Shown: piece by piece, positions 62 through 17,599 of the stretch
How the letters are laid out: each line of letters begins with the position of its first letter
How positions within the stretch are numbered: the first letter of the stretch is position 1
Assembly: GCF_000531125.1 (NCBI RefSeq)
Contig: NZ_CBTK010000024.1
Span: 1-64,000, forward strand
Source: Candidatus Contendobacter odensis Run_B_J11
GTDB taxonomy: Bacteria; Pseudomonadota; Gammaproteobacteria; Competibacterales; Competibacteraceae
Length of the DNA stretch: 64,000 bases
Direction: 5' to 3'
Made by a program: the position numbers and the translations under genes
Notes under the pieces: model-generated
Told to the model about the DNA's origin: nothing
What the model saw: the letters and a program-made list of their open reading frames with translations, nothing else
Database searches by the model: none

Positions 62-642
62 GGTATTTTCCGTCCACGAGGCCGAAACCAAAAACTGTCC
101 GAACCATTGCTATTAAAGGATGCGGCGGCGGTCAATTCGACCCGATGGGTACTCTTCAATACCCTCAAGACCATGGGATTACCGGTCACCACCGGCTCAG
201 GCGGAAGGACGAAATTCAATCGGATGCGGTTAGAAATTCCGAAGACCCATGCGCTGGATGCGGCTTGTGTGGGCGATATGGACGAAATCAGAGATTGGAA
301 TAAACCGACTTTAGCGATTAAAGCGACTGGACGCGGTAGTTATCAGCGAACCCGACTCAATGCCTATGGATTCCCGCGCGACAGAAACGCATTAAAGGTT
401 TCCAGACCGGGGATAGGGTGAAAGCCGAAGTCACCCAAGGCAGGAAAATAGGCTCCTATCTTGGGCGGGTAGCGATTCGCGCATCGGGAAGTTTCAATCT
501 TCAAACCGCTCAAGGGGTGATCCAAGGGATGGGCTATCGGTACTGTAAAGTCATTCAGCGCGCGGATGGTTATGGCTATTCGCAACCACTTAACCCAAAA
601 GAAGCCGAACTTCGTTCGGCCCGCTATCCCTCCCCGGCATAA
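62..642 (+). pseudogene. iscB: IscB-type RNA-guided nuclease, decayed C-terminal part
   Basis: The translation matches the C-terminal part of IscB, the OMEGA nuclease ancestor of Cas9. Visible motifs are KDAAAVNSTRW, GLPVTTGSGGRTKFNR, the RuvC-III stretch PKTHALDAACVG and IKATGRGSYQ. After these the frame breaks at about 377-381 (frame 2 YGFPR, then frame 1 QKRIKGFQTGD), and the tail GRVAIRASGSFN and YCKVIQRADGYGYS follows to a stop at 640-642. Upstream, frame 2 is closed by stops at 26-28 and 59-61, so the RuvC-I, bridge-helix and HNH parts are lost, scrambled or left of the window. The gene cannot make a working nuclease. It lies directly upstream of accA and ends in an IS200/IS605-like hairpin. 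The family assignment rests on motif recall, not a search. Confidence 0.75.
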
Positions 643-651
643 AGGCCGGGG
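632..651 (+). repeat. Terminal hairpin of the IscB element
   Basis: CCCCGGC and GCCGGGG form a 7-bp stem around a short AT-rich loop, overlapping the stop codon of the IscB relic. IS200/IS605-family elements carry such subterminal hairpins at their ends, so this is probably the right end of the element. It stops 18 bp before the accA start codon and does not cover the accA ribosome-binding site (GGAG at 660-663). Confidence 0.5.
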
Positions 652-669
652 TCTCTCGCGGAGATTCTG

Positions 670-16187: not shown

Positions 16188-16214
16188 GTAGCACGGGTAA
16201 GATGCCCGTGCTAC
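16188..16214. repeat. Dispersed inverted repeat, GTAGCACG family
   Basis: GTAGCACGGG and CCCGTGCTAC are perfect 10-base inverted arms around a 7-base loop. The outer sequence is shared with the larger hairpin at 7355-7406. It is the first of four hairpins in a row within the 292-bp gene-free stretch 16108-16399. Confidence 0.75.
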
Positions 16215-16230
16215 GTCAATAACTCTTTCT

Positions 16231-16256
16231 CGTTCCCACGCCGGAGTGTGGGAGCG
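16231..16256. repeat. Dispersed inverted repeat, CGTTCCCAC family
   Basis: CGTTCCCAC pairs with GTGGGAGCG (nine pairs, one G-T) across an 8-base loop. It has the look of a widespread class of proteobacterial intergenic hairpins. No coding capacity. Confidence 0.7.
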
Positions 16257-16273
16257 TGGGAGCCATAATCTCA

Positions 16274-16300
16274 GCCTCTCACCCTTCTTGGGCGAGAGGC
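16274..16300. repeat. Dispersed inverted repeat, CCTCTC/GAGAGG family
   Basis: GCCTCTC at 16274-16280 and GAGAGGC at 16294-16300 form 7-bp arms around a 13-base centre. It is related in composition to the hairpin inside the uracil-DNA glycosylase gene at 33700-33722 and the one at 42971-43001. It abuts the left hairpin of the TnpB element. Confidence 0.65.
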
Positions 16301-16319
16301 CCCGTCCTTTAGGGCGGGG
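16300..16319 (+). repeat. Left hairpin flanking the tnpB element
   Basis: CCCCGTCC and GGGCGGGG pair over eight positions (one G-T) around a TTTA loop. It is the same hairpin as at the right end, apart from one base in the 5' arm. Confidence 0.65.
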
Positions 16320-16362
16320 AGGGAGAGCGCACCGTGCGAAGTACGGTCAAATACCGGTTGAT

Positions 16363-16392
16363 TTGATCTCCATGCTTCTTTGTGAGTATAAT
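16363..16392 (+). promoter_or_regulatory. Predicted sigma-70 promoter of tnpB
   Basis: TTGATC (16363-16368) and TATAAT (16387-16392) are separated by 18 bases. The expected start of transcription, 6-8 bases after the -10 box, falls on or just before the tnpB ATG at 16400. No Shine-Dalgarno sequence is seen there, so the mRNA may be leaderless. Confidence 0.6.
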
Positions 16393-16399
16393 TTTCAAT

Positions 16400-17527
16400 A
16401 TGAAAGTCGTACTGCAAATCAAATTGCTCCCAGATGAAATCCAACACGCAGCGTTGAAAGACACTATGCGTGTCTTCAATGAAGCGTGTAACTTCATTGC
16501 CGAAGTGGCGTTTCGGGAGCAATGCGCGTCCAAGTTTGTCTTGCAGAAACGGGTTTATGACGATGTAAGGAAACAGTTTGGGTTGTCGGCACAACTGACG
16601 ATTCGCGCCATTGCCAAGGTGGTTGAAGCTTATAAGCGCGACAAGTCGAAACACTGCTTTTTCAGACCTACGGGCGCGGTCGTTTACGATCAGCGCATTC
16701 TGAGTTTCAAGGGACTGGAAGCGGCCAGTATCCTGACCTTGCAGGGTCGGTTGACCATTCCCATGCACATGGGAGAATACCAGCGCCTTAAAATGGGCCG
16801 TGGGCATGGACAAGCTGATTTGGTTCTGGTTGACGGGGTGTTCTATTTGTTGCTGGTCATTGAAACACCCACAGCACCGCCGATTGACCCGAAAGATTTT
16901 ATCGGGGTTGACCTTGGCATCGTTCAAATCGCCAGTGATTCGGACGGCGAATCGTTCTCTGGCGAAACGGTTGAGAATACCCGCCGTCGCTACCACGAAC
17001 TGAGAAAAGCCTTGCAAGCCCGTGGATCGCGGTCGGCGCGTCGCCACGTGCAGCGGATCCGGCGCAAAGAATCCAGGTTCAGGAGAAATCAGAATCACGT
17101 TATTTCCAAGAAGCTCGTCGAGAAAGCCAAAGACACCGGGCGCGGAATCAAGCTTGAGAATCTCAAGCATATCCGTGAACGGACGACGGTACGGAAATCT
17201 GATAGAGCCAAACACAGCGGTTGGTCGTTCTTTCAGCTTCAATCCTTTATCGACTACAAAGCGAAGCGGGAAGGCGTTGTCGTTCAGTATGTTGACCCCC
17301 GCAATACTTCGCGCCGATGCGCGATTTGTGGGCATACTGAAAAAGCCAATCGCAAAACCCAATCCCGTTTTCACTGTGTCTCCTGTGGACAGGTGGCGAA
17401 TGCGGATAAAAACGCGGCGATTAATATCGCTGCACCGGCTCATGTCAATGAGCCTATCGTGGCGCACGATGACAACAACGGAGGGTTTCGAGTGCAGCCA
17501 CAAGCCCCATCCTTTAGGGCGGGGTAA
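16400..17527 (+). CDS. tnpB: TnpB, RNA-guided nuclease of IS200/IS605 family
   Basis: TnpB cuts DNA under the guidance of an omega RNA made from the right end of its element; it is the ancestor of Cas12. The 375-residue product has all three RuvC motifs: GVDLGIVQIAS (Asp), LENLKHIRE (Glu) and NADKNAAINIA (Asp). The zinc-ribbon cysteines are CAICGHTEKAN and CVSCGQ, and the C-terminal region NTSRRCAICG is typical. No frameshift or missing catalytic residue is seen. The end of the protein, SFRAG, is encoded by the terminal hairpin, as expected where the coding end and omega RNA overlap. The ATG at 16400 is chosen because it directly follows the predicted promoter; an earlier in-frame start at 16382 would lie upstream of the likely transcript. 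No tnpA accompanies it. Confidence 0.93.
   Translation: MKVVLQIKLLPDEIQHAALKDTMRVFNEACNFIAEVAFREQCASKFVLQKRVYDDVRKQFGLSAQLTIRAIAKVVEAYKRDKSKHCFFRPTGAVVYDQRILSFKGLEAASILTLQGRLTIPMHMGEYQRLKMGRGHGQADLVLVDGVFYLLLVIETPTAPPIDPKDFIGVDLGIVQIASDSDGESFSGETVENTRRRYHELRKALQARGSRSARRHVQRIRRKESRFRRNQNHVISKKLVEKAKDTGRGIKLENLKHIRERTTVRKSDRAKHSGWSFFQLQSFIDYKAKREGVVVQYVDPRNTSRRCAICGHTEKANRKTQSRFHCVSCGQVANADKNAAINIAAPAHVNEPIVAHDDNNGGFRVQPQAPSFRAG
17505..17524 (+). repeat. Right-end hairpin of the tnpB element; likely omega RNA 3' end
   Basis: CCCCATCC and GGGCGGGG pair around TTTA with one A-C mismatch, ending at the tnpB stop codon. In characterised TnpB systems the omega RNA scaffold spans the last part of tnpB and ends at the right end, with the guide read from flanking DNA. 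By analogy the guide here would begin near 17525. This RNA is inferred, not seen. Confidence 0.5.
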
Positions 17528-17599
17528 TTGACCCTTCTGAATGATGGCAACGCAATTCCGCGCTCTATGCCGCCCACGACCCGCAAAATGGAGATTGAA

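What the first reader, a model, noticed from the sequence alone, without database searches (positions are those of the whole stretch)
16300..17527. Intact lone TnpB between matching hairpins, possibly leaderless
All RuvC acidic residues and the zinc ribbon are present, there is no tnpA, and both sides carry the same CCCC-n-TCC-TTTA-GGGCGGGG hairpin. A TTGATC-18-TATAAT promoter ends 7 bp before the ATG, so the mRNA would have almost no leader. With the IscB relic 15 kb away, the window holds two OMEGA-family nucleases in different states. A retained, immobile tnpB may be kept for a cellular job.
Basis: partly seen in the sequence, partly recalled or inferred. Interest (0 to 1): 0.6.

Follow-up and report, generated by a model that had tools for sequence, protein, structure and literature searches.

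The report
Ordinary mobile TnpB gene, leaderless promoter
This is a small, ordinary jumping-DNA element that carries only an RNA-guided nuclease gene (TnpB, a relative of the ancestors of Cas12); its matching hairpins are simply its two transposon ends, and its one mildly unusual trait is a conserved promoter placed so close to the gene that the message probably has no leader.

Summary
In detail: an intact TnpB gene (16400-17527; RuvC D171/E253/D336, two CxxC pairs) lies between two same-orientation hairpins, with no tnpA, and TTGATC-18-TATAAT ends 7 nt before the ATG. A second copy in the same genome (91% aa) and copies in three relatives and a Chromatium MAG define the element: TCAC | 16283-17532 | flank, 1250 bp. 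The hairpins are IS200/IS605 left and right ends, also found on IscB elements, on small ends-only elements and on the window's IscB relic. tnpB is absent upstream of pssA in 29 of 29 relative loci, and in the closest one flank homology begins exactly at the right end. So it is a TnpB-only, IS1341-type element, probably mobilised in trans, not an immobile gene kept for a cellular job. Purifying selection (dN/dS 0.08-0.24) and covarying helices in the 3' end support a working nuclease plus guide-RNA scaffold ending at 17532, with the guide beyond it. The leaderless idea survives best: promoter-to-start spacing is identical in six of six close copies and is seen in an alphaproteobacterial relative, where an in-frame stop blocks a longer start. 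RNA 5' ends were not testable.

The parts
16279..16282 (+). TCAC, left-flank target / presumed TAM
   Evidence: The tetramer before the element is TCAC in 6 of 7 copies and TTAC in 1
16283..17532 (+). whole element (1250 bp), TnpB-only IS200/IS605-type (IS1341-like)
   Evidence: Homology between copies at unrelated loci ends at these borders
16300..16319 (+). left-end (LE) hairpin
   Evidence: the stem varies with pairing kept in other copies
16329..16348 (+). second LE hairpin, CACCGTGC...GTACGGT region
   Evidence: Stem covaries between copies (read by eye)
16363..16392 (+). sigma-70 type promoter: TTGATC 16363-16368, 18 nt, TATAAT 16387-16392
   Evidence: -10 hexamer 7 nt before the start in 6 of 6 close copies
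16400..17527 (+). tnpB, 375 aa RNA-guided endonuclease, intact RuvC and zinc ribbon
17415..17532 (+). predicted guide-RNA (reRNA/omega RNA) scaffold overlapping the 3' end of tnpB
   Evidence: RNAalifold and pair counts on 7 copies: 7 of 38 pairs with double changes, 96.2% of cells paired
17505..17524 (+). right-end (RE) hairpin, last helix of the scaffold
17528..17532 (+). TTGAC, right terminus of the element
   Evidence: Last shared bases of the copies; TTGAC in 6 of 7, ATGAC in the G001 copy
17533..17552 (+). flanking DNA that would form the guide (first ~16-20 nt)
   Evidence: Position by analogy with ISDra2 reRNA (PMC8612924, passages); flank homology with G006 starts exactly here
113..668 (+). 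IscB relic (3' part, two frame breaks)
   Evidence: tblastn of the intact IscB of C14 (L070)
622..659 (-). LE of the IscB relic's element, same hairpin family

Best explanation
A TnpB-only insertion element of the IS200/IS605 superfamily (IS1341 type). Shown by sequence: exact borders, LE and RE hairpins in the same orientation, a TYAC left flank, an intact conserved nuclease, and conserved folded sequence across the last ~118 nt. Inferred: its own sigma-70 promoter inside LE makes a (nearly) leaderless tnpB mRNA; TnpB or host RNases cut the 3' end of that transcript into a guide RNA whose scaffold ends at 17532 and whose guide is the adjoining host DNA (from 17533); the complex cuts the empty site (TCAC + CCTTCTGAATGATGG...) on sister chromosomes, so that repair copies the element back after loss; movement needs a Y1 TnpA acting in trans on the hairpins. 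Its benefit is to the element, not to the cell.
For: A second copy (91% aa, 89% nt) aligns from 16279 to the TTGAC end and nowhere beyond; copies in G012, G024, G001 and a Chromatium MAG share the ends that are held. RE pattern found in 10 of 39 family genomes, this one included, control 0 in all. The pssA site lacks tnpB in 29 of 29 relative loci; in the nearest, G006 (93% PssA), homology starts at 17533. dN/dS 0.075-0.237 in 15 of 15 pairs. Scaffold covariation: 13 double-change cells, 0 of 500 shuffles as high; slid controls 0-3. Size (1250 bp, 375 aa) is close to the published IS1341 ranges, 1252-1393 bp for the shorter group and 362-489 aa (PMC9956272). Small LE+RE elements without an ORF occur in the same genome.
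Against: None of the genome's 8 Y1 matches has both ends of this kind; one weak Y1 match has an RE-like sequence (5 substitutions) 1.3 kb away. No element with these ends among those examined matched the three TnpA queries used, so the mobilising transposase is not identified and may be extinct here. The two copies in this genome differ at dS 0.41, so they are not recent duplicates. No RNA data. The left flank of the element does not align with G006, whose contig starts 87 bp before pssA, so the empty site is seen on one side only.
Confidence: 0.9

Rival explanations
1. Domesticated tnpB kept for a host job.
For: ORF intact and under purifying selection; no tnpA beside it. Near-matches to the guide are more numerous in the genome than to the reversed pattern (58 against 18 with up to 3 mismatches), and one 2-mismatch site follows TTTAC.
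Against: Catalytic residues intact, both transposon ends intact, second copy elsewhere, no conserved locus (0 of 29), sporadic distribution. The guide has no other exact match, nor one with a single mismatch.
Confidence: 0.04
2. An inert, stranded copy: the transposase is gone, tnpB is still readable but the element no longer moves or matters.
For: No TnpA with these ends found; a copy in G012 (L113) is broken by an insert between -10 and ATG and by an internal deletion; the window copy has a 1-nt shift that replaces the last residues of the protein.
Against: Low dN/dS, intact ends, intact catalytic residues; small ends-only elements in several genomes suggest that these ends were mobilised in trans.
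Confidence: 0.2
3. On the start: translation begins at the in-frame GTG 16382, from an mRNA begun further upstream, so the message is not leaderless.
For: GTG 16382 is in frame and invariant in the 6 close copies, within an invariant TTTGTGA.
Against: No Shine-Dalgarno seen before it (by eye); the -35 hexamer, which lies upstream of that GTG, is TTGA.. in 6 of 6 at 17-18 nt spacing; in Rhodovastum the same promoter spacing has an in-frame TAG between -10 and ATG, so no longer start is possible there (frame read by eye).
Confidence: 0.25

Closest known systems
IS1341 group of the IS200/IS605 family (TnpB-only elements)
   Same: One tnpB between LE and RE hairpins, about 1.25 kb, 375 aa, no tnpA (PMC9956272, passages)
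   Different: Nothing of substance; the start-abutting promoter was not mentioned in the passages read
ISDra2 TnpB with reRNA (Deinococcus radiodurans)
   Same: RuvC nuclease, RNA scaffold from the 3' end of tnpB and RE, guide from the flank, TAM beside the target (PMC8612924, passages)
   Different: ISDra2 carries tnpA; TAM TTGAT there, TYAC inferred here; protein distantly related (PDB 8bf8/8h1j, E about 9e-12)
AmaTnpB, which processes its own mRNA
   Same: Scaffold with four stem-loops; the fold here also gives four main stems (PMC10278001, passages)
   Different: Processing not tested here
IscB elements of the same genome (C14, C280)
   Same: Same LE and RE hairpin family
   Different: iscB runs from RE to LE, opposite to tnpB, with its non-coding (omega RNA, recalled) part before the ORF

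Membership tests
IS200/IS605 family, IS1341 (TnpB-only) group | TnpB with RuvC D-E-D and CxxC zinc ribbon | tested here: met
IS200/IS605 family, IS1341 (TnpB-only) group | Subterminal palindromes at LE and RE in the same orientation | tested here: met
IS200/IS605 family, IS1341 (TnpB-only) group | Fixed borders, conserved left target tetramer, no target duplication | tested here: met
   the shared ACCCTTCT at both borders of this copy is not seen in the other copies
IS200/IS605 family, IS1341 (TnpB-only) group | No tnpA in the element | tested here: met
IS200/IS605 family, IS1341 (TnpB-only) group | Mobilised in trans by a Y1 TnpA | tested here: inconclusive
   Eight Y1 matches in the genome, none with both cognate ends
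RNA-guided TnpB nuclease with reRNA/omega RNA | Conserved structured RNA spanning the tnpB 3' end and RE | tested here: met
   In silico only:
RNA-guided TnpB nuclease with reRNA/omega RNA | RNA expression and TAM-dependent cleavage | not testable with these tools
   Needs RNA sequencing and cleavage assays
Domesticated TnpB (nuclease-dead repressors; recalled, no call) | Degenerate RuvC, lost transposon ends, fixed locus | tested here: not met
Leaderless mRNA | -10 box 5-8 nt before the start codon and no Shine-Dalgarno, conserved | tested here: met
   6 of 6 close copies at exactly 7 nt; the script's only SD-like string there is GTGA, part of TTTGTGA
Leaderless mRNA | Mapped 5' end at the start codon | not testable with these tools
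   No transcriptome held

The most novel reading that the evidence does not exclude
TnpB-only elements of this subfamily in proteobacteria (and possibly beyond) use a conserved leaderless design: a sigma-70 promoter inside the left end whose -10 box sits exactly 7 nt before the start codon, so that one short transcript serves as leaderless mRNA at its 5' end and as guide RNA at its 3' end, with no transcribed left-end hairpin.
Probability: 0.5. Interest if true: 0.4.

Novelty: new member of a known kind. Interest (0 to 1): 0.25.

Why it matters
It shows that a 'lone tnpB between hairpins' is the expected anatomy of an IS1341-type element and needs no host function. Of use beyond that: the borders, the inferred TAM (TYAC), the guide and a covariation-supported scaffold are all given, so the nuclease could be tested directly; and if the leaderless start is real, it would be a simple way to keep TnpB synthesis low and to keep the left-end hairpins out of the message.

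Tried and rejected
Matching TnpA: the eight Y1_Tnp places of the genome were scanned for LE, RE and other hairpins; C260 and C57 carry other ends (CCCCGGC-TCT-GCCGGGG), others are partial or REP-transposase-like (my reading); no partner found. Full empty site: relatives mostly have other sequence upstream of pssA, and G006's contig starts 87 bp before it; only the right border could be checked. Host targets of the guide: one search gave 58 sites with up to 3 mismatches (reversed control 18), none exact but its own; of the 12 sites made loci, its own included, 2 others have AC directly before the match and one of these a TYAC (TTTAC, 2 mismatches); not pursued. Leaderless in general: of 26 loci scored, 8 have p < 0.05 (the six close copies, Rhodovastum, one viral contig); three cyanobacterial loci have p 0.075-0.278; four of five Bacillota and Nitrosophilus loci have a Shine-Dalgarno-like core of 4-7 nt by the script (the fifth, L053, has a G-run it did not score) and no promoter at the start, so the design is not general to TnpB. 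Left out of that scoring: L054, L056, L058, L059, L063-L065, L113, L145, L174, L182, L183 and other fragments or loci with too little upstream sequence, no clear start, or near-duplicates. The p values come from single-base shuffles of 60 nt and the close copies are related, so they are not independent tests. A structure prediction was not run: sequence alone places the fold.

Full report
What is there. Window 16400-17527 encodes a 375-aa TnpB. It matches OrfB_IS605 and the Cas12f1-like TNB domain in Pfam, the RNA-guided TnpB model of NCBIfam above its cut-off, and TnpB and Cas12f chains of the PDB. D171, E253, D336 and both CxxC pairs are present. The hairpins 16300-16319 and 17505-17524 are real and are direct, not inverted, repeats.

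The element. A second copy on contig C306 of the same genome, 91% identical in protein, aligns to the window at 89% over 1254 columns, from the left flank TCAC to the right end TTGAC, and not beyond. Copies from two relatives of the same family (G012, whose sequence appears as L051 from a Candidatus Competibacteraceae MAG; G024 = L050), a same-genus genome (G001, 73%) and a Chromatium MAG (L052) give the same borders where the ends are held. L050 lacks its right end (contig end) and L051 has an insert in the LE hairpin loop. The element is therefore 16283-17532, 1250 bp, behind a TCAC (TTAC once in 7 copies). The two hairpins are its LE and RE. Their stems change while keeping pairs: CCCCGTCC...GGGCGGGG here, CCCCGGCA...TGCCGGGG in L052, CCCCGTCG...CGGCGGGG in L050.

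A shared set of ends. The left-end pattern occurs 13 times and the right-end pattern 7 times in the genome, with no match for the reversed control. They bound two IscB elements with open reading frames (C14, C280), small elements of about 370 bp that keep LE, RE and sequence 70-73% identical to the non-coding part of the IscB element (C35, C257), and this TnpB. The window's IscB relic (113-668, two frame breaks, 5' part missing) has the same LE at 622-659 on the minus strand. In 39 genomes of the family, this one included, 10 have the right-end pattern; G024 has 21 sites. No element examined carries a TnpA (three TnpA queries, 39 loci), and none of the 8 Y1 matches in the genome has both ends. 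The mobiliser is not identified.

Mobility and selection. All 29 pssA loci fetched from relatives lack tnpB in the stretch held (several are cut short by contig ends). The closest, G006 (93% PssA identity), aligns with the window from 17533 onward, exactly at the element's right end, and differs to the left of it. The subfamily is sporadic: close full-length copies in 3 of 95 other genomes of the relatives set (27 of 96 have some TnpB match at E <= 0.001), 1 of 397 other phylum genomes at E <= 1e-30, and 0 of 368 other class genomes at E <= 1e-60. Pairwise dN/dS is 0.075-0.237 in 15 of 15 pairs of six copies. This is selection on the nuclease over the family's history; it does not show that this copy serves the host. 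The window copy has a 1-nt shift that gives it different last residues (...QPQAPSFRAG) from its relatives (...KPRPLGRGN), beyond the catalytic part. Decayed copies exist elsewhere, such as L113 in G012 with an insert between the -10 box and ATG and an internal deletion, but none was seen at this locus.

Guide RNA. In seven copies the last 118 nt fold into helices supported by covariation: 38 pairs, 96.2% of cells paired, 7 pairs with changes on both sides, 13 double-change cells (0 of 500 shuffles as high), against 0-3 such cells when the partners are slid. The alignment is small (7 rows) and the structure was derived from it; the number of further pair types is no higher than in shuffles (223 of 500 as high). 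By analogy with ISDra2 (PMC8612924, passages) the guide starts at 17533.

Leaderless start. TTGATC-18-TATAAT ends 7 nt before ATG. By itself this is weak (2 sites in 1451 nt, 0.8 expected). The comparison is stronger: the six close copies score 10, 10, 11, 12, 11 and 8 of 12 with the -10 box always exactly 7 nt before the start, and single-base shuffles reach that score in at most 0.5% of cases. Rhodovastum (53.6% identical protein) has TTGACT-17-TATATA, 7 nt, ATG, with an in-frame TAG between -10 and ATG (frame read by eye); the record's own annotation starts this gene 12 nt later. One viral contig (L146) has TACAAT at 7 nt. Cyanobacterial relatives are suggestive only; Bacillota, Nitrosophilus and others start differently. 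Against: copy C306 starts with GTG, and an in-frame GTG 18 nt upstream is invariant in the six copies. No 5' end has been mapped. A literature search for 'TnpB' with 'leaderless' gave 5 papers; passages of two concern haloarchaea and make no such claim for tnpB; the other three were seen only in the listing.

Verdict. A new member of a known kind: a TnpB-only IS1341-type element with working-looking ends, nuclease and guide-RNA scaffold. The cellular-job idea is not supported. The conserved leaderless promoter is the one feature worth a test.

Noticed in passing
window 16283-16288 and 17533-17538: The left tip of this copy (CCTTCT) equals the first six bases of its own guide, both behind an AC; other copies' left tips read CCGAAT, CAGAAT or CAGATT and do not match their flanks. 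Chance or a repair trace.
   Followed up: partly
G000 C35:49815-50183, C257:2741-3108; also L153, L162, L164, L166, L167, L171: Small elements with LE and RE of this family and no matching ORF; the two in this genome are 70-73% identical to the non-coding (omega-RNA) region of the IscB element: possible stand-alone guide-RNA elements that an IscB could serve in trans.
   Followed up: partly
window 113-668: IscB relic: only the 3' part is left, with two frame breaks; IscB copies with open reading frames exist on C14 and C280 of the same genome.
   Followed up: partly
window 16193-16262: Palindromic REP-like repeats (around GTAGCACGGGTAAGATGCCCGTGCTAC and TCTCGTTCCCACGCCGGAGTGTGGGAGC) directly left of the element.
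   Followed up: no
L113 (G012 C113): A tnpB copy in a relative has a palindromic insert (ATTCCCGCG...CGCGGGAAT type) between the -10 box and the ATG, and an internal deletion.
   Followed up: partly
G000 C278:26556-26571: A site with 2 mismatches to the element's guide follows TTTAC, a possible TAM; likely chance.
   Followed up: no
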